A DNA stretch of 64,000 nt. It comes from Hymenopus coronatus. Taxonomy: Eukaryota > Arthropoda > Insecta > Mantodea > Hymenopodidae. The position numbers and the translations under genes were made by a program. Numbering within the stretch: the first letter of the stretch is position 1; each line of letters begins with the position of its first letter. Location: assembly GCA_030762935.1 (NCBI GenBank), contig CM060900.1, forward strand, positions 431,949,921 to 432,013,920, written 5' to 3'. Below, piece by piece: positions 28,801 to 59,205 of this stretch. The notes under the pieces were generated by a model. That model searched no databases. It was not told the DNA's origin and worked only from the letters and a program-made list of their open reading frames with translations.

Positions 28801-28894
28801 AGAGTTACTCGTTTCCGAAATATTCCTTGTTGGTTTCAATTTTAAACTACTTAATATTTCTTAAATGGAAGTCATCTTTCTCTTTTCTTCTGTC

Positions 28895-29080
28895 GGTCTG
28901 GGTAGCTCAGTTGGTTAGGCGCTGGCCTTCTCTGAGTCACGGGTTCAAATTCGGCCCAGACCGATGTATTTTGACTATTCTTAAAAACGATAGCCTCATG
29001 TAAGTAAGTTTAATGGCATATTAAAGAACTCCTGCGGGACGAAATTCAGACGGACGACGACGCTGATATGATTATGGCAA
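28895..29080 (+). mobile_element. tRNA-headed SINE-C
   Basis: GGTCTGGGTAGCTCAGTTGG with GTTAGGCGCTGGCC (A box) and GGGTTCAAATTCGG (B box) form a good tRNA-like half-structure, closing with GCCCAGACC. The body has TTAAAGAACTCCTGCGGGAC followed by GACGACGCTGATAT, a phrase I know from insect SINEs. Related heads occur at 38826, 41105 and 47525 (reverse). Confidence 0.7.
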
Positions 29081-29094
29081 CTGACAGTGCTGTT

Positions 29095-29287
29095 TACAAA
29101 CAATACATTTTTACTTTCTCTAGCCCCGCATGTACAATGTACATAGGATAGAAAAGTATTGTATTCCACCCAAAAATTCGATGTCGAGATTTCACCGGAA
29201 ATACATGTTTTAGGACCCCCCCTGAATAAAAAAAAACAAAAAAAAGAAGCATTTTCAGAAACAGGTCCGCGCGCGCGTTTGTGTGTG

Positions 29288-29318
<31 letters not shown>

Positions 29319-30310
29319 TTGTCTGTCTGTGGACACCATAACTTAAAACGGAAAGACGGTTAAATACCAAACTTGGTATTTAAGTTTGGTATCTTCCAAG
29401 GACGCGACACGAAGATTTTCAAGAAAATACCCCGACCCCAACTACCCCTTACACGGAAAATTTTTCGAAAATTTCGTTTTTCTTAAAATGGCTCTAACGA
29501 TTTTGATTAAAATATATATTAAAGTCATTTCTATCACAAATAAAATGTATATGTTGAATTTTTTTGGAATAGCTTCTAAAGATCTGTTTATTCTGGATGA
29601 ATTTTGCTTAATTTGGCATAACTAGTAAACCGTAAGAGATGGACGAAAACTCACTGAACAAAAAATGTAGATCTTGCTAAAATACACAAGCTATGTCATA
29701 TACATTTTTTTCGTGGAGCTTACCGTTTTCGAAGTATTCCATGTTACTAGTTTCAATTGTGAAGTACTTATTACTTTTCTCAGATGGAAGTGTCCGTTTT
29801 TCTTTTGTTCTATTCCTGGCCAAGCAAAGAAGCGATTTGTAATGACAATCGCATAGCCACAGCTTTTAAAACATTGACTATCACTTTAGCATAGCTCATT
29901 CCTTTAGTTCCCTTCTACTTATAAGGAACTCAATAATAAGAACATTCTGCTAATGTTTATCTCGATTAGCATGCATTTGAAAGAAGAATTATCTTTTCTA
30001 GGAAGTTTGTAGAATAGCTAGAGAAGTCATGCGATTGTAACACATCAGATTTTTTTGTCTTTCGTTTCATCTCTCTTTTGATTTACTGCTGGTCATGCAA
30101 AGAAAATCGAATTTCAATATTTTCATATAGCGACTGGCTATTTAAAAGTTTTGACTATCGAATTAGCCCAGTGTATTACCTTATTCCCCTTTTACTTAGA
30201 AGGATCTAATACAATCTATTCAACTAATGCTTATCTCGATTAGCACGATATAGATAAAAGAATAATCTTTTGTTACAATAGTAAGTCGTGTGAGTGGAAC
30301 GTATCATATC
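29095..30310 (+). repeat. Rep1 copy, longest plus-strand copy
   Basis: A near-complete Rep1. It starts TTTTTACTTTCTCTAGCCCC, then has AATTCGATGTCGAGATTTCA, a (GT)n/(GTCT)n microsatellite (29275-29333) and TACCAAACTTGGTATTTAAG. Later parts are AACGATTTTGATTAAAATAT, TTCTGGATGAATTTTGC, GGCCAAGCAAAG and TATCTCGATTAGCATGC, with a duplicated 3' block to about 30310. Useful as the window reference for the family. Confidence 0.7.
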
Positions 30311-30830
30311 TTTTTTTTTTTTTTACTTAAACTGTGTAGTTACTTCAACGAAATGTACTTTATGTGAGATTTTGTGTACCTCTTATTTTAACTAGTGGTA
30401 TGAAAGTCATTCAGAATGAAGAGGTCTTCACAGCTATTTCCTGAGCTTTTAAAAATGGGTCTCAATATGTCATTTCATCTTAGACGTATGGTGTTTCAAA
30501 TAAAGCCGTTAAGAGCCGATGTTGAGAAAATCAAGAATATCGAAAAGATTGTTTGGTTTGGGAGAATTTTCTTTAAAGTCTTGTCGTATCTGTGGAAGAT
30601 CTTAAAAATAAATACCAAGTTTGACATTTAGCCGAGATTTCATTTTTGAGTTATGCTGCTCGAAGGCACGCGCATACTCAAGCGTACGCACGCGCGCGCG
30701 CGTGCGCGTGCACACGCACACGCACACAAGGACCTTGTTCTAAAAATTATATTTTGTGTTCAGAGGTTCTCAAAATATATGTTTTCGTGAAATCCTGATA
30801 TCGAAATTGTGGGTGGAATACCCAAAAACA
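30311..30830 (-). repeat. Rep1 5' half, minus orientation, with (CG/CA)n core
   Basis: Reverse Rep1 words from CAGAATGAAGAGGTCTTCAC to AATTGTGGGTGGAATAC. It holds an alternating purine-pyrimidine run at 30686-30728. Confidence 0.6.
30686..30728. repeat. Alternating CG/CA tract, Z-DNA-prone
   Basis: (CG)n followed by (TG/CA)n with few interruptions, within a Rep1 copy where others have plain (GT)n. Confidence 0.85.
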
Positions 30831-36812: not shown

Positions 36813-37180
36813 AATAAATTGGAGAAGAAAGAAGTACAAGAAAACGTGACATCACGATGGAAGAAGAAGGAGAAAGAAGAAATGAGTGAAAAAGTGATAG
36901 TGTATGGTGATTCGATAATAAAACATGTAGCGATAAATAATCCTAATGTAAAAGTAAACGTTTATAGGGGAATGAGAGCTGAATACCTAGCAAACTTAAT
37001 GGACGAAAATGTGTCGAAAAGTGAGGTTAAAACAGTGGTGATCCATGCCGGGACAAATGACATAAAACCAGCTAGTACCTCAGAAGAGGTAATGGCTGAG
37101 GTCTACAATGCAATAAGAAGTGCAATGAAGTGTCACCCTAAGGCAAAAATTGTTGTAAATAGTATAGCCTTAAGAAGGGA
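36813..37180 (+). pseudogene. CR1-like LINE ORF1, SGNH hydrolase part (first half)
   Basis: It continues the ORF1 frame. KVIVYGDSIIKHV holds the GDS nucleophile block of SGNH hydrolases, and VVIHAGTNDIKPAS holds the GTND oxyanion block. The domain is cut after NSIALRRE by the 12-kb element. The remaining blocks are at 49265-49469. In CR1-type LINEs this domain is an esterase thought to act on membranes or lipids. Confidence 0.8.
37173..37180 (+). repeat. 8-bp target-site duplication, left
   Basis: AGAAGGGA directly precedes the inverted terminus GGTAGGACTT and is repeated at 49257-49264 directly after the other terminus. Confidence 0.92.
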
Positions 37181-37534
37181 GGTAGGACTTGGACTACTGG
37201 GTCCCGCACGATTTCTAAGTTCTTTTACATGCGCACGGCCGAGCCAGCCGTCTATGTTGTGGATTGAGGAGTGGGGAGGAGGTAGAAGTGGGGGAAATGG
37301 AATAACCCCTACACGCGCAATGCACGGGATTTTAATCAAAGTCGGCCCAGCCGTTGTTAGAAAATGTAACATTTCTAAAAATTACGTACATTTTATTTGC
37401 CACATAAACATATTTAATGCACAGGATTTTAATCAAAATCGGTCCAGCCGTTTTTAGAAAAAAGTATCAATGGGAAGAGTAGTATGAGGTGAGGATATTT
37501 CTAAAAATCGTCGTGTATCTTTGGAAATAAAACT

Positions 37535-37960
37535 AAGTTAAACTGAGCTTTATTAATGGACACTGTTTAATTGCTGTGGTTCTCAGCGTCCCATTCTATA
37601 GGAACAATCAATGTGTTCTATTCACATGACTTTCTCTGTCTGATGTGCAAACTATTCTTACAACATATTATTATTTTATCCACATCGTGTTAAACAAGAT
37701 TAGCATTAGCAGAAGTGGTCTTATTACTTGCAATTAGAAGGGAAGTTAAACTGAGCTTTATTAATGGACACTGTTTAATTGCTGTGGTTCTCAGCGTCCC
37801 ATTCTATAGGAACAATCAATGTGTTCTATTCACATGACTTTCTCTGTCTGTTGTGCAAACTATTCTTACAACATAGTATTATTATTTTATCCACATCGTG
37901 TTAAACAAGATTAGCATTAGCAGAAGTGGTCTTATTACTTGCAATTAGAAGGGAAGCACT
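37535..37960 (+). repeat. 208-bp direct duplication inside arm A
   Basis: AAGTTAAACTGAGCTTTATT through GCAATTAGAAGGGAAG occurs twice in succession, differing by a three-base indel in the ATTATT run and one substitution. Arms B and C have it once. Confidence 0.85.
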
Positions 37961-38010
37961 ATATGAAACAATTGGCATTGTGTTCTATTTACATGACGAG
38001 CAAAACAAGA

Positions 38011-38250
38011 GATGAGGCCCGCATGGGTGGTGTGGTGGAAGCATGTCTGCCTCACATCAACAGGTCGTGAGTTCGAATCTCGCTTATGGTTAAGTTACCC
38101 GGATAAAGGTTTTTTTTTTTTCCCTGGGTTTTCCCTTATCCCGAGAAGAAGATGAATGTCGAGTAATTTTAAGCTCCATAGACCCCAAGATCATTTGAGC
38201 TCATTTCACCAAGTTCATTCATCGTTCGGTATGACCAATCAGTTTAAAAG
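38011..38250 (+). mobile_element. SINE-B copy (tRNA-Val-like head) in arm A
   Basis: GGTGTGGTGGAAGCATGTCT (A-box side), CTGCCTCACATCAACAGG (anticodon arm with CAC) and GAGTTCGAATCTC (B box), then TTAAGTTACCCGGATAA and a body ending near TCGTTCGGTATGACCAATCA. Copies also at 40384-40620 (arm B) and 48020-48255 (arm C). Confidence 0.75.
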
Positions 38251-38414
38251 ACGTGTTAATCCAATAAGAAAAAAAGAAAAGGAGATGAAATGAAAGACCT
38301 AGTTTTTATTCCAGGAAAGTTTTAAGAAGTTTAAAACTGAAACCAAAAAGAAGGAATATTTCGGAACGGCTAACTATACTAAAAACTGTATGACAAATTG
38401 TTTGCTGCTAGTAG

Positions 38415-38580
38415 AACTACCAGACCCAATTCCTCTCTGTGAGACGACCATCTCTTCCTGCAAGAAAATTTTAAAGTCCTGGCGCATGCGTACTACCAGA
38501 CCCGATTCCTCTCTGTGAGACGACCATCTCTTCTTGCAAGAAAATTTTAAAGTCCTGGCGCATGCGTACTACCAGACCCA
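38415..38580 (+). repeat. Tandem pair, about 79-bp period, in arm A
   Basis: CTACCAGACCC followed by TTCCTCTCTGTGAGACGACC and GTCCTGGCGCATGCGTACTA is present twice here and once in arms B and C. Confidence 0.8.
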
Positions 38581-38825
38581 ATACGTTTATTTGGTCACAT
38601 AATAATAAGTACACCGTGTAATACCAACACGTATGTTTTTATTAAACGTTTATCTGTATTCTTAATAATTTTTGTGCTATGTGACAGTCAGAATTAGGAT
38701 TGTATCATATGCTTTTCTGGACACTTAATTATAACACCGTGTAACATCCATGTGTACTTTTTAATATGCTTATCCTTGTGCTTAATAATTAATTAACCAC
38801 AAAATAGTAATTTCAGCCACAAGTC

Positions 38826-38905
38826 TCTCGCTCTGGGTAACTCAGTTGGTTAGGCACTGGCCTGATCTCGTAGGATGCGGGCTCAAACCCGGCTCATTTT
38901 TTACG
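38826..38905 (+). repeat. SINE-C head in arm A
   Basis: CTGGGTAACTCAGTTGGTTA and GGGCTCAAACCCGGCTC, like 28898-28965. Copies lie at 41105-41190 and, reversed, at 47445-47525. Confidence 0.65.
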
Positions 38906-39264
38906 TTATGTACAATGTAGAGAAATATTGTATTGTATTCCACCCAAAAATTCCATGTCGAGATTTCACCAGAAACACATGTTTTGGGTCGACCTGAATC
39001 CAAAAAAGCATTTTTGATAAAAGGTCCGTGTGCGTGTGTCTGTGGACAACATAGCTCAGAAACGAAAAAGTCCGGTAAATACCAAACTTCATATTTAAGT
39101 TCAGTACTTGGACTACTGGGTCCCGCACGATTTCTAAGTTCTTTTACATGCGCACGGCCGAGCCAGCCGTCTATGTATAGTTTGAGGAGTGGAGAGGTGG
39201 TAGAAGGGGGGGGGGGAAGGAATAACCTCTCACGTGCATTACGTACATTTTATTTGCCACATAA

Positions 39265-40030
39265 ACATATTTAATGCACGGGATTTTAATCAAAATCGGT
39301 CCAGCCGTTGATAGAAAATGTAACATTTCTAAAAGTTACGTACATTTTATTTGCCACATATGCAACATTTCTAAAAGGTACGTACATATTAAAAAATAAC
39401 GTACATTTTATTTGCCATATAAACATATTTAATGCACGGAATTTTAATCAAAATCGGTCCAGCCGTTGATAGAAAATGTAACATTTCTAAAAGATACGTA
39501 CATATTTGCCACATAAATATATTTAATGCACGAGATTTATTCAAAATTGGTCCAACCGTTGATAGAAAATGTAACATTTCTAAAAGTTACGTACATATTT
39601 GCCACATAAACATATTTAATGCACGGGATTTTAATCAAAATCGGTCCAGCCGTTTTTAGAAAATATAACGTTTCTAAAAAGTATCAATGGGAAGGGTAGT
39701 ACGAGGTAAGAATATTTCTAAAATTCGTCGTGTATCTTTGGAAATAAAATTAAATTAAACTGAGCTTTATTAATGGACATTTTAATTCCTGTTGTTCTCA
39801 GCGTCCCATTCTATAATCGGTCCAGCCGTTGATAGAAAATGTAACATTTCTAAAAGATACGTACATATTTGCCACATAAATATATTTAATGCACGGGATT
39901 TATTCAAAATTGGTCCAACCGTTGATAGAAAATGTAACATTGCTAAAAGTTACGTACATATTTGCCACATAAACATATTTAATGCACGGGATTTTAATCA
40001 AAATCGGTCCAGCCGTTTTTAGAAAATATA
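39265..40030 (+). repeat. Subterminal repeat array (unit about 110-165 bp)
   Basis: Repeats of AATCAAAATCGGTCCAGCCG, GATAGAAAATGTAACATTTC, TAAAAGTTACGTACAT and TTTGCCACATAAACATATTT in that order, at least six times, with local deletions. The mirrored array is at 48600-49080. Subterminal repeats are typical transposase binding regions in several DNA transposon superfamilies. Confidence 0.8.
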
Positions 40031-40383
40031 ACGTTTCTAAAAAGTATCAATGGGAAGGATAGTACGAGGTGAGGATATTTCTAAAACTCGTCGTGTATCT
40101 TTGGAAATACAATTAAATTAAACTGAGCTTTATTAATGGACATTTTAATTGCTGTGGTTCTCAGCGTCCCATTCTATAGGAACACTCAATGTGTTCTATT
40201 CACATGACTTTCTCTGTCTGTTGTGCAAACTATTCTTACAACATATTATTATTTTATCCACATCGTGTTAAACAAGATTAGCATTAGCAGAAATGCTCAT
40301 TACTTGCAATTAGAAGGGAAGCGCTATATGAAACAATTGGCATTGTGTTCTATTTACATGACAAGGAGCAAAACAAAAGAGAT

Positions 40384-40620
40384 GAGGCCCGCATGGCTGG
40401 TGTGATGGAAGCGTGTCTGCCTCACATCAACAGATCGCGAGTTCGAATCTCGCTTAGGGTTAAGTTACCCGTATAAGGGTTTTTTTTTTTTTTTTCTGGG
40501 TCTTCCCTTATCCTGAGAAGAAGACGAATGTCGAGCAATTTTAAGCTCCATGAACCCCAAGATCATTTGAATTCATTTAGTTCATTTATCGTCCGGTATG
40601 ACCAATCAGTTTAAAAGACG
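40384..40620 (+). mobile_element. SINE-B copy in arm B
   Basis: GAGGCCCGCATGGCTGGTGT, CTGCCTCACATCAACAGATC and GAGTTCGAATCTCGCTTAGG, then the same body as the arm A copy, ending near CGTCCGGTATGACCAATCAG. Confidence 0.75.
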
Positions 40621-41194
40621 TGTTAATCCAATAAGAAAAAAAGAAAAGGAAATGAAACTAAAGACCTAGTTTTCATTCCAGGAAAGTTTTAAGAAGTTTA
40701 AAAGTGAAACCAAAAAGAAGGAATATTTCGGAACGGCTAACTATACTAAAAACTATATGACAAATTGTTTGCTGCAAGTAGAACTACCAGACCCAATTCC
40801 TCTCTGTGAGACGACCATCTCTTCCTGCAAGAAAATTTTAAGTCCTGGCGCATGTGTACTACCAGACCCAATACGTTTATTTGGTCACGTAATAATAAGT
40901 ACACCGTGTAATACCAACACGTACGTTTTTATTAAACGTTTATCTGTATTCTTAATAATGTTTGTCCTATGTGACAGTCAGAATTAGGATTGTATCATAT
41001 GCTTTTCTGGACACTTAATTATAACACCGTGTAACATCCATGCGTACTTTTTAATATGCTTATCCTTGCGCATAATAATTAATTAACCACGAAATAGTAA
41101 TTTCAGCCACAAGTCTCTCGCTCTGGGTAACTCACTTGGTTAGGCACTGGCCTTCTGATCTCGTAGGACGCGGGCTCAAACCCGGCTCATTTTT

Positions 41195-42025
41195 TACGTT
41201 ATGTACAATGTAGAGAAATATTTTATTGTATTCCACCCAAAAATTCCATGTCGAGATTTCACCGGAAATACTTGTTTTGGGTCGACCTGAATCCAAAAAA
41301 AAGGTCTGTGTGCATGCGTGTGTGTGTGTGTCTGTGGACAGCATAGCTCAGAAACGAAAAGGCCGGTAAATACCAAACTTCGTATTTAAGTTCAGTATAT
41401 TCCAAGATTGCAACACGAAGATTTTCGAGAAAATCCCCGACCCCCCAACTACCCTATACATGGATTAATTTTGGCAAATTTTGATTTTCTCCCAAATGGC
41501 TCTAACGATTTTGATTAAAATATCGTATATTAAAGATATTTACCTGACAATTAAAATATATATCTTGAATTTCCTGAGAATAGCCTCTGAAGACTACTTT
41601 ATTCTGGATGTATTTTACTGAATTTTGCATAACTGGCAAACCGTAAGAAATCGACAGAAACTTACTCCACAAAAAATGTAGAACAGGGTAAAACACATAA
41701 TTTATGTCATATGCATTTTTTTCGTAGAGTTGGTCGCTTTTGAGATATTCATTGTTTTTGGTTTCAGCTTTGAAAAACTTATACTTTTCTCATACAGTAA
41801 TTTGTCAACCCCTGTCCATATAAACAAAGGAACTTCAGTCACATAACAACCAGCTTTTGACTGTCACTTTAACCTATGGTACTCCCTTATTTCGCCTCTA
41901 CTTACAAGGAAGCAAGTAATAAGACTATTTCTGCTAATTTTTTTTCGATTAGAGTGAAGTAAATTGAAGCATAAGCTTTTTAACAATGATTTGTTGCAGA
42001 GATGTAGAGAAAGTCATGTGAATGG
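41195..42025 (+). repeat. Rep1 copy inside the giant element, plus orientation
   Basis: Full order from CGTTATGTACAATGTAGAGA and AATTCCATGTCGAGATTTCA to GAGATGTAGAGAAAGTCATG. The 5' hairpin is shortened. Confidence 0.7.
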
Positions 42026-42039
42026 AACACAAAAAAGAA

Positions 42040-42390
42040 GTTGATACGGTACATTCATTTGGCTTTCTGTGTAAAATTATCGTTTATTAGTGGCGATACC
42101 AACAAATCGTTTGAAGGTTTATTTTTCTATCTGCTTCATTTTAATCGAGACAAACCTCTGGACATATTATTATTAGCTCAAATGTTATTTCATATTTCCT
42201 CATAGTTGAAAAGGAAATGACGGAATACACTAGACCAAAGCGATAGTTTTAAGCGAAGATCGCAATATGATTGCTTTGAAATTCGCTTCTCTTTGCATGG
42301 CCACGTGTTAAAATGTTAGGATCTATCTTCTGTGTTATGTATTGTAAAACTGAAACTAACAAGGAATATCTTGAAAACTGTTAACTTCAC
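42040..42390 (-). repeat. Rep1 3' half, minus orientation
   Basis: Reads in reverse from TTTGGCTTTCTGTG through TTTTAATCGAGACAAACCTC and TTTGCATGGCCACG. It forms an inverted pair with the preceding copy. Confidence 0.55.
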
Positions 42391-42474
42391 ACAATAATAT
42401 ATGCCTGACATTGTGTATTATCGTGCTCTATTTTTCTCTGTAATAATTTTAATTAACAAAATAACTTGGGGGGA

Positions 42475-43730
42475 TGCACAAAGATGTATATATGGGGTTG
42501 GAGAGGAACTCAATGATAAAATGTAATTTATATGGGGATAAAGATGGATGTGTATAGTGTGGAGTTTATATGGGGATGGTGAGGGCTGTGTATAGTGTGG
42601 AGTTCATATGGGAATGGTGAGGGCAGTGTATAGTGGGGAGTTTATATGGGGATGATGAGGGCTGTGTATAGTATGGAGTTCATATGGGGATGGTGAGGGC
42701 TGTGTATAGTGGGGAGTTTATATGGGGATGGTGAGGGCTGTGTATAGTATGGAGTTCATATGGGGATGGTGAGGGCTGTGTATAGTGGGGAGTTTATATG
42801 GGGATGGTGAGGGCTGTGTATAGTATGGAGTTCATATGGGGATGGTGAGGGCTGTGTATAGTGTGGAGTTTATATGAGGATGGTGAGGGCTGTGTATAGT
42901 GTGGAGTTCATATGGGGATGGTGAGTGCTGTGTATAGTGTGGGGTTTATATGGGGATGGTGAGGGCTGTGTATACTGTGGAGTTTATATGGGGATGGTGA
43001 GGTCCTGTGTATAGTGTGGAGTTCATATGGGGATGGTGAGGGATGTGTATAGTGTGGAGTTCATATGGGGATGGTGAGGGATGTGTATAGTGTGGAGTTT
43101 ATATGGGGATGGTGAGGGCTGTGTATAGTGTGGAGTTCATATGGGGATGGTGAGGGCTGTGTATAGTGTGGAGTTTATATGGGAATGGTGAGGGCTGTGT
43201 ATAGTGTGGAGTTTATATGGGGATGGTGAGGTCCTGTGTATAGTGTGGAGTTCATATGGGGATGATGAGGGATGTGTATAGTGTGGAGTTTATATGGGGA
43301 TGGTGAGGTCCTGTGTATAGTGTGGAGTTCATATGGGGATGATGAGGGATGTGTATAGTGTGGAGTTTATATGGGGATGGTGAGGGATGTGTATAGTGTG
43401 GAGTTTATATGGGGATGGTGAGGGATATGTATAGAGGGGAGTTTATATGGGGATGGTGAGGGATGTGTATAGTGTGGAGTTCATATGGGGATGATGAGGG
43501 CTGTGTATAATGGGGAGTTTATATGGGGATGGTGAGGGATGTGTATAGTGTGGAGCTTATATGGGAATGGTGAGGTCCTGTGTATAGTATGGAGTTCATA
43601 TGGGGATGGTGAGGGATGTGTATAGTGGGGAGATTATATGGGGATGGTGAGGGATGTGTATAGTGGGGAGTTTATATGGGGATGGTGAGGGATATGATAG
43701 TGGGGAGTTTATATGGGGATGCAGAGGAAA
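42475..43730 (+). repeat. 38-bp minisatellite, about 33 units
   Basis: The unit is TATATGGGGATGGTGAGGG followed by CTGTGTATAGTGTGGAGTT. Adjacent units often alternate between CATATG and TATATG starts and between GTGTGG and GTGGGG ends, giving a partial 76-bp dimer order. Some units have a one-base-longer GGTCCTGTG form. One strand is rich in G and lacks C, so strand asymmetry is strong. It lies next to the 3' end of the Merlin transposase. Confidence 0.95.
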
Positions 43731-43761
43731 TTATATGGGAATGAAGTTGTGAATATGTATT

Positions 43762-44943
43762 TTAATTCGGGAAACAGATGTGGCATAAACAATTGTCCAG
43801 GTCTGGTGACATTGCAATTTTGCCCACACCTGGATAGGCGGTGGCGATATCCTGGAGCAATGCCTCAAACCGCTGGGTATGGTTTTGTAGGTGATTAAGT
43901 TTGTTCTCTCTGTACATAAACTCTCCAATGTAACTGGATGCATGCTCGATGCTTGTGCATGTTGCCAGGATACCTTTTAAAGATCTCCATGACCTTTCTT
44001 TGTTTTGGGTATGATACCGCAAGGGTCTCATATTGGGGGCTGGCGCAGGCCCTACCCATTGCCTATCCAGACATTCAGGATTAAAGTCCTCTTCTGGTAC
44101 CCAGAAAGGATCCATATTTCTCGGTGGGTTTACAAACTGGCGTTTGTGGTTGACGGTGCCATAGCCTGTGAAAACAGCATTGCAGGCTCTGTATGCCCTC
44201 CATTCGTCTGTGATTACAAAACTTTCGTAGGCAATGTACTTCTGCATAATGGGCAGCAAAGCATCCGTTGAGCGATTTGGCACAAGGAGTGCAAAACGTA
44301 ATTTCGTTGTGCGACTTATCCCACCGACTTACCAATAATGCCGCCACATTACCTGTCTTCCAACATTGTATTTTCTTTTGAACAGATGAGTTTCAGCCAC
44401 TTCCACGATGTCGTTGGGACCACCTAGTTGTTGGAAATCATGCCAGGCTATTTTGGTGGCCACATCCCGGAAGTATCTGCTCCATGCTACGGCGGTATCT
44501 TGTGCCACTCCCAATTCTTCCTGGATGTAGGACAAAGTACACTGCCGCATCCATAAAAATGCGAACTGAATAATTATGTCGGTGCGCAATTTGGCATTAA
44601 AACGCACATGTTGCAAAAAGGTGTTATTTGTCGCCTCTAAACGGTGGCCGTTGGAGCATTTAAATCTCCAGCCGAGACCACGATTAGCCAATGCAACTGT
44701 GTGTGCATCTGCAAATTACACCGAGGACACCTGCGATCTCGGTTGGCACGACGGTTTTGCATTTCTGCATCCCTGTCCGGAACAGTTCCATAAAGCAGAA
44801 AAAACTCCAAACCTTTTCTCTTCATCTGTAATGCAGTACCCAAAATGGGCACTTAGCAATCTGTAAGTTAACCTGCCAGTTTGCATGAGTTCGCGGGCGT
44901 TCATCCTGAATGCAAGTTGTAGGCAGAATGAATTGCAGTGCAA
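43762..44943 (-). pseudogene. Merlin (IS1016/ISXO2-like) transposase, decayed
   Basis: Read down from 44907, the protein starts MNARELMQTGRLTYRLLSAH, then has a zinc ribbon (RRCPRC, later WRFKCSNGHRL) and a helix-turn-helix-like part (YIQEELGVAQDTAVAWSRYF). The DDE core follows: GGPNDIVEVAETHLFKRKY, RFALLVPNRSTDALLP, SFVITDEWRAYR and HTQNKERSWRSLK. This is the IS1595/Merlin pattern. Damage: frameshifts near 44,785 and 44,690, a TAA at 44329-44331, and an Ala codon (44395-44397) where the first catalytic Asp of V-D-E-T should be. The second Asp (TDEW) and the NxE region remain. It is inactive. The gene lies in the centre of the giant inverted-repeat element. Confidence 0.85.
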
Positions 44944-45324
44944 TCCCCAATGCTAAATGCGCCGAAAATACAAGTTTTCCCGCTAATGGCAAATCGTCAG
45001 ATATCATTGTTAAGCAACTCCTCGAGGTAGCGGTGGGGGGAAGGGAGAAGTGTAGTGTTAAGCAGAGGAGACCAAAATTACCTACCTGGATTTAGTTATG
45101 CAAGCTAAGAGGGAAAATCCAAAAACTGCTCTACATTTTCACATAATATGTGTATGTAAATGCATAAATAAAAGTAACATGATCAATAAAAAGAGTAAAC
45201 CTACATCATTCTTGAGAAACAAATCAATTGTTATGTTTCTGTTTGTTGTAAGCGTGAATTCATTCATAATCACATAAATGTAATATTAAGCCCGCGATTC
45301 GTCCCATAAAAATGGGGGGTCCCC
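44944..45324. other. AT-rich spacer upstream of the Merlin transposase
   Basis: Contains the sequence upstream of the transposase start (44910-45100, moderately GC-rich) and then AT-rich DNA. The transposase promoter should be here; no clear TATA-type element can be argued. Confidence 0.35.
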
Positions 45325-45810
45325 CTTTTTACTTTCTCTATACGCACTATGTACACACAGTGTATAGAGAAGGTATTGCACTCCACTCAGAAATTCGATA
45401 CCGAGATTTCACTGGAAATATACGTTTTAGGGTCCCCTGTATAAAAAAAAATATATATTCACAAAAAGTCCGTGTGTGTGTCCGAGTGCCCATGTGTCTA
45501 TGACCACAGTAACTCAAAAACGAAAAGTCGGTAAAATACCAAACTTGGTATTTAAGTTTAGTATCTTCCAGGGATGCGACACAGATTTTGAGAAAAATCC
45601 CCCCACCCGCAACTACCCTTTACATGGAACTTTTTTCGAAAATTTTGATTTTCTCAAAAATGGCTCTAACAATTTTGATTAAAATAGCGTAAATTAAAGA
45701 TATTTATATACCAAATAAAATGTATGTCTTGAATTTTCTGGGAATAACCTCTAAAGACTACTTTATTCTGGATGAATTTCACGAACTTTTGCATAACTCC
45801 TAAACCGTAT
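45325..45810 (+). repeat. Rep1 5' half, plus orientation, with clear terminal hairpin
   Basis: Begins TTTTACTTTCTCTATACGC, where CTTTCTCTATAC at 45333-45344 pairs with GTGTATAGAGAAGG at 45360-45373. Then come AATTCGATACCGAGATTTCA, TACCAAACTTGGTATTTAAG and AACAATTTTGATTAAAATAG. The best example of the Rep1 start hairpin. Confidence 0.75.
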
Positions 45811-46060
45811 CTAGTCACAATGTATTATTTCTCTAATTTCGTCCAATCAAATTTAACTCGTACGTAATTAATGGTTGCAAACTAAATATGTCAAGCATGT
45901 GATAATTCTTATCTGCAGCTTTCGTCGATATGTACATAATTCCAAGATGTGCAGCCTTAACAGAATTCTAATTTCATTATTAGCAAGCATGCTAATATGG
46001 TTTTTTAATGTTTCATTTGTATAGCCCCTTTAACTTCAAAGGATAATTATTACGCTAGGG

Positions 46061-46610
46061 TTGACAGTACTATTTATACTTTACAAACATCATTGCTCTG
46101 TCACTCGCTTATATCAAAGCATAGGATCACTAAAATCACTTGCAAGACAAATTTTTAAGATTGACATGGCCAGTGAGCAGGTAATTGTAGGGGGAGACCT
46201 AAATCTTCCGCGAGTTAACTGGACGGGTGACGTGAGGGGTGGGGAATTGCAGGCTATTTGCTAATGACCTTGTTTTGGAAGGTGGCCTTGTTCAAACTGT
46301 AAAAACCCCAACCAGAGAAGGGGCGGTTTTGGACATATTTCCTGTAAAGCCAGAAGAATCTGTACTAGAATGCGAGGTTTTTCCAGATATAAGCGACCAT
46401 AACTGCGTATTACTTAAAATAGAAGGAATACGTGCCAAGTTTCACACGGATGAAATTAGACAGTTTTACCAATATTACAAAGGAGACATTCCGAGGCTGC
46501 AAAAATTCTTAAACGAAAAATATTCGCTGTGGTCCCAATCTGGAAGCTCGTTAGAAGAAATATGGCAACATCTTAAAACAATTGTTATGGAAGCAACATA
46601 TAAACTTATA
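46061..46610 (+). pseudogene. LINE ORF2 endonuclease fragment
   Basis: Two overlapping frames (shift near 46245) carry VIVGGDLNLPRVNW, then NDLVLEGGLVQTVKTPTREG and SDHNCVLLKIEGI. GDLN and SDH are the last conserved blocks of LINE apurinic-type endonucleases. The protein goes on to KLIPRK, then into the SINE by read-through, and resumes at 46918 as MLTKSPDPEYYNKIVKRLKK. Confidence 0.75.
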
Positions 46611-46620
46611 CCCCGTAAAA
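46611..46620 (+). repeat. 10-bp target-site duplication, left, of SINE-A
   Basis: CCCCGTAAAA is repeated exactly at 46908-46917. Confidence 0.88.
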
Positions 46621-46907
46621 GTGTAATGGTTACCGTGCTGACTTCATATACCCAAGGTCGCGGGTTCAAACCTGGCGGAGGACGATGGATTTTTTCGGGC
46701 GTAAAAATCCTTAGCATGGCTTCCTTCGGAAGGGAAGTAAAGCCGTGGGTCCCGTGTCGTAGATTTACGGCACATAAAAGAACTTCAAGCCTGATAAGAG
46801 AGGCCTCTGAGCAAAATTAAGCGATCTTTCACGGCCAATATAGAATGGGACGCTGAGAACCAAAGCAGTTAAAGAGCGTCCATAAATAACACGCCATTTC
46901 CATTTTT
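46621..46907 (+). mobile_element. SINE-A copy with exact target duplication
   Basis: It starts GTGTAATGGTTACCGTGCTG, so it lacks about 14 nt of the usual head, and carries B box GGTTCAAACC, GTAAAAATCCTTAGCATGGC, TCGTAGATTTACGGCAC and a CATAAATAACACGCCATTTC tail. Removing it with one 10-mer rejoins the LINE frame as LIPRK-MLTKSP. Confidence 0.92.
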
Positions 46908-46917
46908 CCCCGTAAAA

Positions 46918-47100
46918 TGCTAACTAAAAGCCCTGACCCAGAATACTACAATAAAATAGTAAAACGGCTGAAGAAACTAGTCAGAAGAGCATATAGTTCA
47001 CGAAAAATTAATAATTATCACGCAAATAAATTCCGAGTTTTGTCAACCTTCTACTGGAAAAGATTATGTATTGTACAATTGTACATTGTATTATTACATT
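46918..47100 (+). pseudogene. LINE ORF2 continuation after the SINE
   Basis: TKSPDPEYYNKIVKRLKKLV and RRAYSSRKINNYH continue the basic linker between endonuclease and reverse transcriptase seen in many LINEs. The frame then passes into 3' untranslated sequence, marking an internal deletion near 47035. Confidence 0.65.
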
Positions 47101-47334
47101 GATAGCGCTGCCACCGGGCCACGCCCTAAGTGAAATAAAGTATCTAACTATCTATCTATCCATCTATATCTATATTATAAAACGTAATAAGAGAAGCTGG
47201 CCGCTGGTATTTCTTTCCAGTTTGGATGGGCATTGATAATGTTATATTTTCTCAAAATTACGGCGGCATTCTGTATTAAAGAGCCCATGATTGGGTGCAC
47301 TGAATAGGAAAAACAATGAAAGAATAGCAGACGG

Positions 47335-47436
47335 AAGTATTTTTACTTTCTCTAACACGTATGTAGGAATAATGAACAATGTAGGAAGAGAAAGTATTGG
47401 ATTCCACTCAAAACTTCGATAGTACCGAGAATTTAC
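47335..47436 (+). repeat. Rep1 5' fragment
   Basis: TTTTTACTTTCTCTAACACG and AGAGAAAGTATTGGATTCCA followed by AAAACTTCGATAG. Truncated where the inverted right arm begins. Confidence 0.55.
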
Positions 47437-48019
47437 ATAACGTAAAAAATGAGCCGGGTTTGAGCCCGCGTCCTACGAGATCAGAAGGCCAGTGCCTAAC
47501 CAAGTGAGTTACCCAGGGCGAGAGACTTGTGGCTGAAATTACTATTTCGTGGTTAATTAATTATTATGCGCAAGGATAAGCATATTAAAAAGTACGCATG
47601 GATGTTACACAGTGTTATAATTAAGTGTCCAGAAAAGCATATGATACAATCCTAATTCTGACTGTCACATAGGACAAACATTATTAAGAATACAGATAAA
47701 CGTTTAATAAAAACGTACGTGTTGGTATTACACGGTGTACTTATTATTACGTGACCAAATAAACGTATTGGGTCTGGTAGTACACATGCGCCAGGACTTA
47801 AAATTTTCTTGCAGGAAGAGATGGTCGTCTCACAGAGAGGAATTGGGTCTGGTAGTTCTACTTGCAGCAAACAATTTGTCATATAGTTTTTAGTATAGTT
47901 AGCCGTTCCGAAATATTCCTTCTTTTTGGTTTCAGTTTTAAACTTCTTAAAACTTTCCTGGAATGAAAACTAGGTCTTTCGTTTCATTTCCTTTTCTTTT
48001 TTTCTTATTGGATTAACAC

Positions 48020-48255
48020 GTCTTTTAAACTAATTGGTCATACCGGACGATAAATGAACTCAATGAACTCAAATGATCTTGGGGTTCATGGAGCTTAAAA
48101 TTGCTCGACATTCGTCTTCTTCTCAGGATACGGGAAGACCCAGAAAAAAAAAAAAAAACCCTTATACGGGTAACTTAACCCTAAGCGAGATTCGAACTTG
48201 CGACCTGTTGATGTGAGGCAGACACGCTTCCATCACACCAGCCATGCGGGCCTCA
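48020..48255 (-). mobile_element. SINE-B copy in arm C
   Basis: Reverse of the arm B copy: GATTCGAACTTGCGACCTGT, GATGTGAGGCAGACACGCTT and GCCATGCGGGCCTC. Confidence 0.75.
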
Positions 48256-48599
48256 TCTCTTTTGTTTTGCTCCTTGTCATGTAAATAGAACACAATGCCA
48301 ATTGTTTCATATAGCGCTTCCCTTCTAATTGCAAGTAATAAGAGCATTTCTGCTAATGCTAATCTTGTTTAACACGATGTGGATAAATTAATAATATGTT
48401 GTAAGAAAAGTTTGCACAACAGACAGAGAAATCATGTGAATAGAACACATTGATTGTTCCTATAGAATGGGACGCTGAGAACCACAGCAATTAAAGTGTC
48501 CATTAATAAAGCTCAGTTTAATTTAATTTTATTTCCAAAGATACACGACGAGTTTTAGAAATATCCTCACCTCGTACTACCCTTCCCATTGATACTTTT

Positions 48600-49080
48600 T
48601 AGAAATGTTATATTTTCTAAAAACGGCTGGACCGATTTTGATTAAAATCCCGTGCATTAAATATGTTTATGTGGCAAATATGTACGTAACTTTTAGAAAT
48701 GTTACATATTCTATCAACGGCTGGACCGATTTTGAATGAAATCCCGTGCATTAAATATATTTATGTGGCAAATACGTATGTAACTTTTAGAAATGTTACA
48801 TATGTGGCAAATAAAATGTACGTAACTTTTAGAAATGTTACATTTTCTATCAACGGCTGGACCGATTTTGATTAAAATCCCATGCATTAAATATGTTTAT
48901 GTGGCAAATAAAATGTACGTTATTTTTAATATGTACGTAACTTTTAGAAATGTTGCATATGTGGCAAATAAAATGTACGTAACTTTTAGAAATGTTACAT
49001 TTTCTATCAACGGCTGGACCGATTTTGATTAAAATCCTGTGCATTAAATATGTTTATGTGGCAAATAAAGTGTACGTAAT
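48600..49080 (-). repeat. Subterminal repeat array of the right arm
   Basis: Four to five inverted copies of the unit found at 39265-40030, with CGGCTGGACCGATTTTGAT repeated at 48624, 48718, 48855 and 49010 or close by. Confidence 0.8.
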
Positions 49081-49256
49081 GCGCGCGTAGGGGTTATTCC
49101 TTTTATGTACGTAATGCGCGTGTAGGGGTTATTCCTTCCCCCCCCCCCACTTCTACCACCTCTCCACTCCTCAAACCACACATAGACGGCTGGCTCGGCC
49201 GTGAGCATGTAAAAGAACTTAGAAATCGTGCGGGACCCAGTAGTCTAAGTCCTACC

Positions 49257-49264
49257 AGAAGGGA
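49257..49264 (+). repeat. 8-bp target-site duplication, right
   Basis: AGAAGGGA, identical to 37173-37180, directly after the terminus CTAAGTCCTACC. Confidence 0.92.
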
Positions 49265-49469
49265 TGTTAGATATGGCTTCTTGAAAGCCATAAATGAGGA
49301 AATACGCTGGGCTTGTGATACACTGAAAGCAATATTTGTTGATACTAACAAGTTCTTAGATGAAAGTTGCCTTGGGAGGGATGGACTTCACTTAAATAGA
49401 AAAGCGTCATTTCTATTAAGTCAAATGATAAATAATGTAATCAACGTATGCATGAAATCGGGAAACTAG
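49265..49469 (+). pseudogene. CR1-like LINE ORF1, SGNH hydrolase part (second half)
   Basis: Joined to 37180 without the insertion and with one duplication copy, the frame runs LRRD-VRYGFLKAINEE. It continues to LGRDGLHLNRKASF, which holds the Asp and His of the SGNH catalytic block (D-x-x-H), and stops at TAG 49467-49469. The two halves together give an ORF1 of roughly 380 residues. Confidence 0.85.
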
Positions 49470-49692
49470 TTTCGGGTACAGAGGGTGATAAATTGCACAA
49501 TGTGTCCGTAAACTGTCAACTAAAGCTAATGGTGTAATCGTAAATAGGGAAACAATTGCACATCCACAACCTAAAATCGGGAAACTAGTTTCGGGTACAG
49601 AGGGTGATAAATTGCACAATGTGTCCGTAAAATGTCAACTAAAGCTAATGGTGTAATCGTAAATAGGGAAACAATTGTACATCCACAACCTA
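49455..49692 (+). repeat. Two-copy tandem duplication, 119-bp period, at the ORF1/ORF2 junction
   Basis: AAATCGGGAAACTAGTTTCG starts at 49455 and 49574. Both copies cover the ORF1 stop and the ORF2 start. The second copy has the ORF2 ATG (AAATGTC); the first has CTG (AACTGTC). Confidence 0.9.
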
Positions 49693-50432
49693 AAATCTCT
49701 ATTAGGTGTATACATCAGAATATACAGTACTTATCTAATAAAAAGGAATCCTTTGCTAGTTTCATTAATGAAGTAGATGCTGACATAGTTGCGATCTCAG
49801 AGCATGGTCTAAATAAACCCCAAGAATTTGTATGTAAAATTGATAACTATTCTATTATTGATATATTTAGTAGAAAAGAACATAAGGGTGGTGGAGTGGC
49901 ATTACTGGCAAAAAATATATACAATGTTGCTCCATTAATAAAAATACGAGATTTTAATATTGAAATGGTATGTGAGATGATAGGGGCCCAAACCAAACTG
50001 AATAATGAAATTCTTGCTATTTATAGATCTCCACATGCTAAAGTAAATGAATTTATTGAATGTATGTATAGAGTATTAGGGTATTGTTTAAAACATGACT
50101 GTAAAATAATAATAATGGGTGACTTGAACATATATGCTGATCATATGAATGGGGATTTTCTAAAGTTGCAGGATATGTTCTATTCATTTAATTTAAAAAG
50201 TGTTAAGCTAGATGCTACTAGGGAAATTATAAATTCAAATTCTGTAATTGATTATGTTGTTACCAATATAAAAGAAAGCCAATGTGTTGCTGGGAATATG
50301 GTCAAACACCTATTTGATCATCATGTTCAATTTTTAGATATAAATAACTGTACATTTAAAAACCCTGAACTAACTGAAACTATAACCCATAGAGAATTTA
50401 CTGAGGCTAATATTTTAAAACTACATACTTGA
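49632..50432 (+). pseudogene. CR1-like LINE ORF2, endonuclease part
   Basis: The frame begins MSTKANGVIVNRETIVHP. Apurinic-type endonuclease blocks follow: CIHQNIQYLSNK (QN block), DIVAISEHGL (catalytic Glu), KGGGVALLAK, LAIYRSPH, IIIMGDLNIYAD and VIDYVV, with LFDHHVQF where SDH is usual (Ser to Phe). It stops at TGA 50430-50432, and the same frame goes straight on, so this is a nonsense mutation inside ORF2. Confidence 0.85.
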
Positions 50433-51122
50433 TTGGCTAATGAAATATGTCAAGATTTGTATAGCATTAAAAATACAAATGAAAACTGGAATACTTTTTA
50501 TGAAATTCTAAACCTCTATATTGAGCTATGCTGCCCTATAGTAAACAAAACATGTGAACCTTTAAAAAAACATAAAGTAAGGATTTCAAGAGAGGCTTTG
50601 AGGTTGAGGGAAAAAATAAAGGATTTATATCTACTTGCTAAATCAACAAAACTCGAGCACTACAATATCAAATACAAACAATTTAAAAAAGCATATGAGG
50701 ATGAATTGATAAACAATAAATCACAAAAGGTGATAAGAAAGCTTTCTGATACTAGTAACTATTCAAAAACAGCATGGTCAATGATTAATAGCATGAGGGA
50801 AGAAAAGTTAGAGCAAGAAAATATTAATCTACTCATTAATAACTGCATAGAAAATAATCCACTTCAGATATGCAATCGTTTTAATGATTACTTCATAAAT
50901 GTTGCTAGCAATCAAAATACCCCTGATGTTGCAGGTTTTAAAACTAATAAGGGTATAGGAAATTCGCTTTATCTGTATGATACTACGCCAGATGAAGTTA
51001 TAAGATTAATTAATGGATTTAAAAATAAAAATTCCACTGGATGGGATGGAATTAGCTCTAAATTGTTAAAAAGATGTAAACATGTTTTGAGCACCCCCTT
51101 GGTTCAGCTAATAAATCACTAA
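50433..51122 (+). pseudogene. CR1-like LINE ORF2, linker before reverse transcriptase
   Basis: In frame with the endonuclease part. A basic, Lys-rich linker (LREKIKDLYLLAKSTKLEHY) is followed by FNDYFINVASNQN and NKNSTGWDGISSKLLK, the first reverse-transcriptase block of CR1/jockey LINEs. It ends at LINH by a one-base deletion near 51110-51116; the next segment is in another frame. Confidence 0.82.
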
Positions 51123-52516
51123 ACCTAGGAATTTTCCCAGATTGTTTAAAAATTAGTACTGTGATTCCGATACATAAAAAGGGAGACAAAAGTAACATGC
51201 AAAACTATAGACCTATAACCCTTACCTCGGTAATAGCTAAGTTGTTTGAAAAAATACTATTGAAGAGAATTATGAATTTCTTTGAAAAATATATTTTAAA
51301 TGATTTTCAGCATGGCTTTCGGGCTAAAAGATCAACCACCACGGCCCTAATTGACTTTACTCACAACATCTTAAGTAATCTAAATGAAAAAAAGAAAACT
51401 GTAGGCATATTTTTTTATCCATCTAAGGTGTTTGACTGTGTCCAACACGATACATTACTATTAATCTTAGAAAAGTACGGCATTAGAGGGGTTACCAATA
51501 GATTAATTTTGGCGTATCTAAAAGGTCGTGTACAATACACAGAAATAAGTTTCAAACAAGGAAAAAACAGAACAAAATTTAAATCAAGTGCTGAAATAGT
51601 TAAATACGGTGTACCCCAAGACTCAGTACTTGGACCATTATTCTTTATTTTATATTTAAATGATATGTATTCGACACCTAATGGTAAAATTATAAGCTAT
51701 GCAGATGACACCACTATTATATGTAAAGCAAACAATGATCTTGACTTGAAATCACTAGCCACCAATGAATCGCTAAGAATAAACACATTTTTTAAATCTC
51801 TCAACCTCACTAATAACCCTGACAAGACAAATATAATTATATTTGAGTTAAGCAAGAAGAAAAAAGATATATTATATCATATTAACTTTGGAAATGTTGC
51901 AATACAGGAATCTGATTCTCACAAATTTTTAGGAATGCAAGTAGATAAACCCATGTCCTGGACTAATCATATCGATGACCTATGTAAAAAAATAAGTAAA
52001 GGTTTGTATTTAATGAGGGAATTTGCAAAAACTTGTAATGTTGAGGTTCTAAAACTTATATACTATGGGTTAATTTATTCACATATCCAATATGGTATTG
52101 AATTATGGGGGGGTTGTAATAAAATGCATATGCAAAGGGTTCTAGTGGTACAAAAGAAATGTATCAGAACTATGTTTAAAATGGGGTGTCGAGAATCATG
52201 CAGGGAAGTTTTTAAAAGAGAAAAGATATTTACTGTAGTATCTCTATACATAAACAAAGTAACTTACTTAATTAACCAGAAAAAACCAAAACTAAATAGT
52301 GAAATACATAACCATGATACTAGATGCAAACTTGACTTACATTATACCAGCTACAATGTAAAATCTGTAAATAAAGATCCCTATATAATAGGATTACACA
52401 TATATAATCGACTCCCTGCATATGTAAAAAATGAAAATGCTGTTAAATTTAAACAATGTCTCAAGACATATTTACTGAACAATCCTGTGTATGATATCAA
52501 TGAATTTTTAAAATAA
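51123..52516 (+). pseudogene. CR1-like LINE ORF2, reverse transcriptase
   Basis: Carries VIPIHKKGDKSNMQNYRPIT, FEKILLKRI and HGFRAKRSTTTALI. Motif A reads FFYPSKVFDC, with Tyr in place of the catalytic Asp of FLDLSKAFD. Motif B is GVPQDSVLGP (usual GVPQGSVLGP), and motif C is SYADDTTII, intact. The thumb and C-terminal region follow (HKFLGMQVDKPMSW, LIYYGLIYSHIQYGIELWG) to the stop at 52516. No RNase H. With two key changes in the active site this protein cannot have polymerase activity. Confidence 0.85.
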
Positions 52517-56981: not shown

Positions 56982-57027
56982 CCGATGCCATTCACTCTAC
57001 TACTGCTCCGCTGTCTGACAAGTGCAT

Positions 57028-57045
57028 GTAGCTGACGTCAGCTAC
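57028..57045. promoter_or_regulatory. 18-bp palindrome with CRE core (TGACGTCA), unit 1
   Basis: GTAGCTGACGTCAGCTAC is a perfect palindrome whose centre is the consensus CREB/ATF site. The same 18-mer is at 59188-59205 and 63276-63293. Function is not shown. Confidence 0.5.
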
Positions 57046-57364
57046 AACTTAAATAGCTAGCTGATGTTATGGTTGACTGCCATATTCTTTATATAATGTT
57101 TTTTGTACACGATTTCTCACTATGTATTTCACAACTATTGCTGCTACTCAGCTTATACCTATCTTCTTATATAATACTTACAAAATGCTTTCTTTCTATA
57201 TCTCACTCTTTTTTGCATAGCTACTCACAATTTCCTTCACTAAAACTAAATCAAATCTAAGCTCAGCACCCTGCATGAAGTCCACACTTGCTAAACAGAG
57301 CCCTTTCCATCAGTACTGCTGGACATTTTATTTAATTGCTAATTTATTCTTTCTTTATGCTTAG

Positions 57365-57505
57365 ATGCTACAAAGAAAAGTGATGGAGAAAAAAATTGCA
57401 AAGAGAGAAGAAAAGAAACTAACAGTAAAGAAAGAGGAAGTATCTGCATCCGTAGCTCAGGAAAAGCCTACCAAAGGCAGTCTCAAGAGCTTAGAGGTGA
57501 TAAAG
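57365..57505 (+). CDS. Putative repeated exon, copy 1 (47-residue Lys/Glu-rich unit)
   Basis: A 141-bp block follows a pyrimidine-rich acceptor (CTTTCTTTATGCTTAG) and precedes a donor GTAAGAG. Its length is a multiple of three, so copies can be skipped or joined in phase. In phase 0 it reads MLQRKVMEKKIAKREEKK and continues to SLKSLEVIK, a highly charged, probably helical or disordered unit. The frame that starts at its third base is also open in every copy (ATKKSDGEKNCKERRKE). I cannot tell which frame is used. Substitutions among copies do not show the excess of third-position changes that selection on phase 0 would give. It may belong to a large repeat protein gene on the plus strand, or be a non-coding duplicate. 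Confidence 0.5.
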
Positions 57506-59187
57506 GTAAGAGTATTATAATATATTTCACTCACTGCTCATATTATAACCACTAAATACGGAGAGATTTAACTTTGCACCTGATATTAGTGCTGCCTCAT
57601 GGTCACTCTCTCATGCTGTTGCCACATTTGTCACTCACTGTCTTCCATGCCCAATGGCTGCATTTGAAAACCACTGAAACTACTAAAATCTCACATCTTT
57701 ATAATAAAACACTAAAATATAGAATTCTCAAGTATTAAAAATAATTTGTGTAAGACCTCCAGATATGCTATTGTATGTATTTTGTCTGCAATCACTGCAG
57801 TATTAAAACAATACTGTTGTGAGCAGTGTATGTTATAAGGAGGAACTCGGGTGAAATCAAGAAATGTTGTAAACATATTGAAACCAGGGTGATGTCACAC
57901 CACTGAATGCAAGATAATTTTATAAGGTGATTGGATGAGACCAACCCAGACATCACAGATGAATGAGTAACGTGGTTCCCACATGCATAGTTAACTCTCA
58001 GTGACCTAAGAAGCATCATAATGACTAGGAAGGGGAATTTTATTTGCTAAAATAATTTACTTTTAATATACTAAAAAGAGGGAAGAATTTGGAAAAATCT
58101 TTAAAATATTTTGTAAAATTTAAACAATATTTTCCTTCACTTCATAGAAATGTGGGAAAATTGTTAATTTATTATTGTTAGGGGTACTTGCCATTCATAG
58201 ATGGACAGTGGTTTTAAGATTCTTTTAGTAGATGACTCTGCCTCTATTGACCAGCTCTTACAATATGTTAAATTAAATTACTTTTTTTAAGAAGCTTTAA
58301 TTCCTTAGAATCTAATAAGGCATGTTTCTTGTGTGATATATTCCTTTGTATGTGTTCATTCAGCTTCTTTTTGTAATTGTAGAGTATTTCTCTGTTTTGT
58401 TTGAACATATTAATTTTTGTGTCACAGTATAAATAAATATTAGTCAATGTGCAGTGCTGAAGCCATAGCAGTTTTATGCCACCCAAATATTATCACTACC
58501 TCCATTGATATTGCCTTAAAATTGCAATGGGCAAAAATTGTCTTCTTCAAATTGTCTGTTCTTGAATGCATGCTAATTATCTCATAAATGGTGTCTTATA
58601 TTGTGAAAATGATCTTTTCCTATCACAGAATGCTAGAGGCACATATTTAAACAAATGGATGCCTTTAACACTCACATCTTTAAATCACATACTTGTTTAC
58701 CTTCCATAGTTAAGCTACTCTACACAGATTTTGAAAACCGTTTTTTCTCAAGAAAAATCTTATATTTGTCTTTTAGTGCTTTTAGGCCCTGAAACAGATT
58801 GTTTTTCATTTAAACAGCCTACAGCATTCATTGTTTCACTTAGCAGATTTTGAGTTTCTGGTCTTTGATGAAGTCACACAAAAAGTTTAGATTTGTAGAT
58901 ATGAACACCTAATCGTATTTAATTAACCATTTTTCAAAAACTTTGAACTATATTTTTACGTGATATATTGCTTTTTTACCAACTAATTTACCTCAAAATA
59001 TCAAAAACAGGAGCACCATTAACAGTGAAGTATTTATCATCTTGGAGTTATGCTGAGTCACACGTATTTACACTCACCTCCACTTAATATGGTTGAAAAA
59101 AAATAGACGTTTTCGAGAATATTTGTCCTTGTCTTCTTCATGAGATGCCATTCACTCTGCTTTGGCTCAGATGTCTGACAAGTGCAT

Positions 59188-59205
59188 GTAGCTGACGTCA
59201 GCTAC
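59188..59205. promoter_or_regulatory. CRE-core palindrome, unit 2
   Basis: Identical 18-mer to 57028-57045. Confidence 0.5.

What the first reader, a model, noticed from the sequence alone, without database searches (positions are those of the whole stretch)
37181..49256. A 12-kb Merlin-like DNA transposon with long inverted arms, caught inside a LINE by an exact 8-bp duplication
Both ends carry the inverted terminus GGTAGGACTT..ACTACTGGG and are flanked by AGAAGGGA. The interior holds a Merlin (IS1016-like) transposase, and the arms form an inverted repeat of about 1.8 kb. Known Merlin elements make 8-9 bp duplications but are usually only a few kb long. This one carries passenger LINE, SINE, Rep1 and minisatellite DNA, so it may represent a large cargo-bearing Merlin form. 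The link between this transposase and these ends is inferred from position and duplication length.
Basis: partly seen in the sequence, partly recalled or inferred. Interest (0 to 1): 0.88.

Follow-up and report, generated by a model that had tools for sequence, protein, structure and literature searches.

The report
Twelve-kilobase fold-back Merlin-type transposon
A 12,076-base piece of mobile DNA with long mirrored arms and a broken Merlin-type transposase gene sits inside a retrotransposon gene between two identical 8-base copies of the target, and it was likely moved there by a Merlin enzyme supplied from another copy, which would make it an unusually large and fold-back-shaped relative of a normally small kind of transposon.

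Summary
Element 37181-49256 has ends GGTAGGACTT[G/A]GACTACTGGG..., identical at 74 of the first 76 bases, and exact AGAAGGGA duplications on both sides. Removing the element and one duplication restores a continuous LINE ORF1; its GDSL-hydrolase match rises from 23.6 to 39.4 bits across the join. The only transposase domain found in six frames of the whole element is Merlin/IS1595 DDE. Published Merlin marks, 5'-GG and 8-9-bp duplications, are met. The gene is dead: two frameshifts, a TAA stop, and alanine for a conserved aspartate, so this copy probably moved in trans. The arms resemble Galileo/Foldback architecture. No inner terminal pair fits the Merlin gene better than chance. Unproved: that this transposase recognises these ends. 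No second copy could be examined: all 20 searches of the window's own genome did not complete, and the ends were absent from IMG/VR.

The parts
37173..37180 (+). left target-site duplication AGAAGGGA
49257..49264 (+). right target-site duplication AGAAGGGA
37181..37256 (+). left terminus, GGTAGGACTTGGACTACTGGG...; 74 of 76 bases match the right terminus
49181..49256 (-). right terminus (inverted)
37181..39106 (+). outer left arm (arm1); 95.6% to arm2 and 95.5% to arm3 in the core columns
39107..41205 (+). inner left arm (arm2); direct copy of arm1, starts with a terminus lacking its first 6-7 bases; 98.7% to arm3 in the core columns
47434..49256 (-). right arm (arm3), inverted
39409..40042 (+). 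93-bp subterminal tandem repeats (39409-39679 and 39815-40042; a 94-bp array lies at 48597-48803 in the right arm)
41190..42031 (+). decayed copy of a ~0.9-kb noncoding repeat ('U', named here) also dispersed elsewhere in the window
42113..42431 (-). part of repeat U, opposite strand
42527..43721 (+). 38-bp minisatellite, about 31 copies, beside the transposase gene
43762..44904 (-). Merlin-type transposase pseudogene: two frameshifts (about 44816 and 44700), TAA at 44329-44331, conserved D replaced by A; carries DDE_Tnp_IS1595
45324..45809 (+). part of repeat U
46621..46905 (+). SINE-like repeat, 75-90% identical to four other places in the window, and to a 50-bp piece at a fifth (tRNA-like head judged by eye)
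36813..37180 (+). interrupted LINE ORF1 (GDSL hydrolase domain), left part; an in-frame stop lies just before it
49265..49469 (+). interrupted LINE ORF1, right part
49611..52516 (+). ORF2 region of the host LINE in three open stretches (endonuclease match in the first, RVT_1 in the last)

Best explanation
A 12,076-bp inverted-repeat DNA element with GG...CC ends interrupts a LINE ORF1 between two exact 8-bp copies of the target, and it is likely a non-autonomous, fold-back-type member of the Merlin superfamily that would have been moved by a Merlin transposase made by another copy. Shown: the ends, the duplication, the restored LINE frame, the three arms, the dead Merlin gene, and no other transposase domain found by Pfam in six frames. 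Inferred: that a Merlin transposase binds the 76-bp termini of arm1 and arm3, cuts there and inserts the whole unit with an 8-bp staggered cut. Inferred: that the long arms grew, as described for Galileo, by tandem repeats and by capture of neighbouring repeats, and that arm2 and arm3 were later homogenised while arm1 was not. The buried terminus at about 39107 lacks its first 6-7 bases and would likely not work as an end, so the outermost pair is taken to be the one used.
For: Exact 8-bp duplication and 74 of 76 matching terminal bases. LINE frame restored, GDSL score 23.6 to 39.4 bits. DDE_Tnp_IS1595 at 4.5e-11. The protein search gave 15 relatives among 645 candidates: best 56% to P0001 (no organism named); the three with organism names are insects, a firefly (45% over 99%) and two aphids (52% over 44% and 38%). 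Six-frame Pfam scan of the whole element at E up to 0.1: one transposase domain, Merlin's, and two sub-cutoff matches to non-transposase families. Merlin described with 5'-GG ends and 8- or 9-bp duplications (PMC8101967, passages). No nearer TIR plus duplication around the gene: best 11 of 20 matches, against a mean of 10.9 and a maximum of 15 in 30 shuffles made for the 8-bp case; with GG...CC required and one mismatch allowed in the duplication, best 9 against a maximum of 11 in 40 mononucleotide shuffles. Lesions that kill the gene. Internal tandem repeats are reported in Merlin families, and TIR growth by tandem repeats and captured TEs in Galileo (PMC4168063, passages).
Against: Only one copy is known, so the gene-to-end link rests on position. 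The 1.8-kb arms far exceed the 24-462-bp TIRs reported for Merlin. Seven- to ten-bp duplications with long composite arms also occur in Galileo (P superfamily; 7-8 bp) and Tm1 (Mutator/Foldback; 8-10 bp). The Merlin gene is decayed, so it may be an older passenger whose own ends have eroded. No other Merlin gene, and no copy of the terminus beyond the element's own three, was found in the window.
Confidence: 0.6

Rival explanations
1. The ends belong to a fold-back element of another superfamily (Mutator/Phantom-like or P/Galileo-like), and the decayed Merlin gene is passenger DNA captured inside it.
For: Long composite arms with internal tandem repeats and 7-10-bp duplications are described for Galileo and Tm1. 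The interior is a mosaic of old repeats, so a captured gene would not be odd.
Against: No P, Mutator or hAT domain in six frames of the element at E up to 0.1. The ends begin with GG as described Merlins do. No separate ends stand out for the Merlin gene.
Confidence: 0.25
2. Compound transposition (a variant compatible with the best explanation): two neighbouring elements of one family, the outer one keeping only its left part (arm1 plus centre) and the inner one (arm2...arm3) lacking its left tip, moved together from the left end of one and the right end of the other.
For: arm1 and arm2 are direct copies joined at about 39106/39107, where sequence that runs on at 41397 meets a terminus lacking its first 6-7 bases. 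arm1 is the odd one at 41 of 55 variable core sites.
Against: A tandem duplication of the left end, before or after insertion, followed by conversion between arm2 and arm3 explains the same pattern.
Confidence: 0.3
3. A chance arrangement of old repeats or an assembly error.
For: Repeat-rich region, and inverted arms are hard to assemble.
Against: The restored reading frame and the exact 8-bp duplication in LINE sequence on both sides are hard to explain by collapse or chance.
Confidence: 0.02

Closest known systems
Merlin superfamily (IS1016/IS1595-related), eukaryotic
   Same: DDE_Tnp_IS1595 domain; 5'-GG ends; 8-bp duplication; internal tandem repeats
   Different: 12 kb in all, arms of about 1.8 kb against published TIRs of 24-462 bp; three arms; dead transposase; captured repeats
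Galileo (P superfamily, Drosophila)
   Same: very long arms that grew by tandem repeats and captured TEs; 7-8-bp duplication (passages of PMC4168063)
   Different: no P-type transposase domain found here
Tm1 (Mutator/Foldback, root-knot nematodes)
   Same: composite long inverted repeats, 8-10-bp duplications (passages of PMC3169594)
   Different: no Mutator-type transposase domain found here; the one Tm1 element whose length the passages gave is 1080 bp

Membership tests
Merlin superfamily | transposase with DDE_Tnp_IS1595 domain | tested here: met
   PF12762 at 43.4 bits, cutoff 27; gene is a pseudogene
Merlin superfamily | termini starting 5'-GG | tested here: met
   both ends begin GGTAGGACTT; criterion from PMC8101967
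Merlin superfamily | 8- or 9-bp target-site duplication | tested here: met
   AGAAGGGA on both sides, 8 of 8
Merlin superfamily | TIR length in the described range of 24-462 bp (descriptive, not diagnostic) | tested here: inconclusive
   the first 76 bases match at 74 without gaps, but the arms run on, with gaps, to about 1.8 kb
Merlin superfamily | these ends are cut by a Merlin transposase | not testable with these tools
   no second copy could be examined; own-genome search did not complete (20 attempts)
Galileo / P superfamily | P-type transposase in the element | tested here: not met
   no such domain in six frames at E up to 0.1
Galileo / P superfamily | long arms with tandem repeats, 7-8-bp duplication | tested here: met
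Mutator/Foldback (Tm1-like) | Mutator-type transposase in the element | tested here: not met
   no such domain in six frames at E up to 0.1

The most novel reading that the evidence does not exclude
A fold-back Merlin: a Merlin lineage whose ends can mobilise 12-kb units with three kilobase-scale arms and captured repeats, here by joint use of the left end of one arm copy and the right end of another, so that Merlin spreads long palindromes and cargo in the way Galileo does in flies.
Probability: 0.35. Interest if true: 0.6.

Novelty: new variant of a known kind. Interest (0 to 1): 0.45.

Why it matters
If the ends are Merlin ends, fold-back architecture, known from P and Mutator elements, arose a further time in the IS1595-related Merlin line. 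Merlin would then be a possible source of long palindromes, inversions and minisatellite spread in insect-type genomes. It would also widen the size range in which annotators should look for Merlin elements.

Tried and rejected
Inner Merlin element with its own TIRs: nothing above shuffle level. Dispersed repeat U as complete elements with Merlin-like ends: four inverted clusters tested; two gave no exact 8- or 9-bp duplication in the stretches scanned and two gave at best 7 and 8 of 20 matching end bases. A whole-window scan printed one pair between U copies, 17633/22952, at 17 of 20 with an exact 8-bp duplication, which I did not follow up. One U pair encloses what looks by eye like a host exon near 10.4 kb. 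A second Merlin remnant in the window: best E 0.19, not convincing. Merlin relatives in IMG/VR and GTDB contigs: none confirmed. The ends in IMG/VR: none; the ends were not sought in GTDB. Arm sequence 37181-41205 against phage records: none. These collections may leave out the window's own genome, as the tools say. Relatives of the host LINE's endonuclease stretch: none at E up to 0.001. Solved structures for the transposase's C-terminal part: two matches, E 0.1 and 0.73, unrelated. Rfam and ARAGORN: none. Single-strand fold of the left terminus: weaker than most shuffles (178 of 200 fold at least as well).

Literature: five searches (20 of 39, 4 of 4, 14 of 14, 11 of 11 and 15 of 27 papers listed). 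None listed describes, by its title or the shown start of its abstract, a fold-back or 10-kb Merlin. Three papers were seen in passages only (PMC8101967, PMC4168063, PMC3169594). The original 2004 Merlin description was not read.

Full report
The observation. The left flank ends AGAAGGGA (37173-37180), the element begins GGTAGGACTTGGACTACTGGG at 37181 and ends CCCAGTAGTCTAAGTCCTACC at 49256, and the right flank begins AGAAGGGA (49257-49264). The two termini match at 74 of the first 76 bases without gaps. A whole-window scan for exact 8-bp duplications flanking inverted 20-mers (at least 15 of 20 matching, 100 bp to 16 kb apart) gave 16 pairs, 12 of them printed. Nine of the 12 are palindromic 8-mers within the element's own arms, where they are expected; one is 37181/49256 with the non-palindromic AGAAGGGA at 19 of 20; two others, 17633/22952 and 1440/15952, reach 17 of 20.

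The target. The element lies in ORF1 of a LINE whose ORF2 region carries an endonuclease match and RVT_1 at 9.8e-26. Joining the flanks after removing the element and one duplication gives one open frame of 190 residues. The GDSL-hydrolase match rises from 23.6 bits for the left part with its read-through into the element to 39.4 bits, above the curated cut-off of 32.9, with the match running across the join. This is strong evidence for a single precise insertion of 12,076 bp. The LINE is not intact: ORF1 has a stop upstream, and the ORF2 region lies in three open stretches.

The arms. There are three. On the left, arm1 (37181-39106) is followed directly by arm2 (39107-41205, its similarity to arm1 running on to 41397). 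On the right, arm3 (47434-49256) is inverted. At the arm1/arm2 joint, sequence that elsewhere runs on at 41397 meets a terminus lacking its first 6-7 bases. I counted differences in a chosen well-aligned core (columns 1060-2236 of 2433). In its 1,076 gap-free columns 55 sites vary: arm1 is the odd one at 41, arm2 at 6 and arm3 at 8. Pairwise, arm2 and arm3 agree at 1071 of 1085 (98.7%), arm1 and arm2 at 1030 of 1077, and arm1 and arm3 at 1029 of 1078. In the outer 134 columns the same count is 7, 4 and 2. Over the whole alignment, where repeats of different number are misaligned and the inner tail of arm3 is not homologous, it is 138, 18 and 74. So arm2 and arm3 share a more recent common state than either does with arm1, either because they were homogenised or because one was copied from the other later. 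The arms carry 93- and 94-bp subterminal tandem repeats, pieces of a decayed 0.9-kb repeat dispersed in the window (called U here, model built from four copies), and SINE-like pieces (tRNA likeness judged by eye, and ARAGORN finds no tRNA gene).

The interior. From left to right it holds U pieces (41190-42031 plus, 42113-42431 minus), a 38-bp minisatellite of about 31 copies (42527-43721), the transposase pseudogene (43762-44904 minus), a U piece (45324-45809), a stretch that looks by eye like a LINE endonuclease remnant but has no Pfam match (46236-46820), and a SINE-like repeat (46621-46905).

The transposase. The C-terminal part matches DDE_Tnp_IS1595 (PF12762) at E 4.5e-11. The protein search returned 15 relatives among 645 candidates. 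The best, of unnamed source, is 56% identical over 98%; the three that carry organism names are from a firefly (45% over 99%) and two aphids (52% over 44% and 38%). The gene is broken by two frameshifts near 44816 and 44700 and by TAA at 44329-44331. The conserved D of VE[VI]DE, present in all 7 relatives aligned, is A here; that this D is the first catalytic residue is recalled, not tested. Six-frame Pfam scans of the whole element at E up to 0.1 found no other transposase; besides Merlin's domain they gave two sub-cutoff matches, to WH_KIN17 and DUF4318.

Does the gene belong to the ends? Merlin elements are described with 5'-GG termini, 8- or 9-bp duplications and 24-462-bp TIRs (PMC8101967, passages seen). 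The first two are met and the third is exceeded by the arms. If the gene were a small Merlin element nested in a foreign fold-back element, it should have ends of its own. None stood out: the best was 11 of 20, against up to 15 in 30 shuffles made for the 8-bp case; with GG...CC required, 9 against up to 11 in 40 shuffles. Age could have erased them, so this is supportive, not decisive. Against the link stands the fact that long composite arms with 7-10-bp duplications are known from P and Mutator elements (PMC4168063, passages; PMC3169594, passages).

Mechanism. I take it that a Merlin transposase made elsewhere in the genome recognised the outermost termini (arm1 left, arm3 right), excised the unit and inserted it with an 8-bp stagger into a LINE. 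The in-trans step is inferred from the dead gene; the gene may have died after insertion. The arm growth is modelled on Galileo, where tandem repeats and recruited sequence extend the TIRs. Whether arm1 is a tandem duplicate of arm2 or the remnant of a neighbouring copy moved along with it stays open.

Limits. The genome in which the window lies could not be searched in 20 attempts. IMG/VR held no exact copy of the ends, and neither IMG/VR nor GTDB contigs gave a confirmed Merlin relative, as expected for an animal element. So the family rests on one copy.

Noticed in passing
9128-11818, 18445-21787, 22767-25602, 28453-30821: A decayed 0.9-kb noncoding repeat (U) occurs in at least four clusters, often as an inverted pair with the same inner boundary; no convincing TIR plus duplication found at the ends scanned. 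The pair at 9.1-11.8 kb encloses what looks by eye like a host exon near 10.4 kb.
   Followed up: partly
17633-22952: Inverted 20-mers, 17 of 20 matching, in two U copies with an exact 8-bp duplication AGATATTT; may be chance.
   Followed up: no
56984-64000: Direct repeats of about 0.3 to 2.2 kb, 94-98% identical, run to the window's end.
   Followed up: no
49455-49697: Tandem duplication of 119 bp, 98% matching, at the end of ORF1 and before ORF2 of the host LINE.
   Followed up: no
2586-5797: A second LINE-type element with long open frames: RVT_1 at 3.9e-31 and RNase H at 1.1e-9.
   Followed up: partly
39103-39176: A buried copy of the element's terminus, lacking its first 6-7 bases, at the joint of two direct left arms.
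   Followed up: yes
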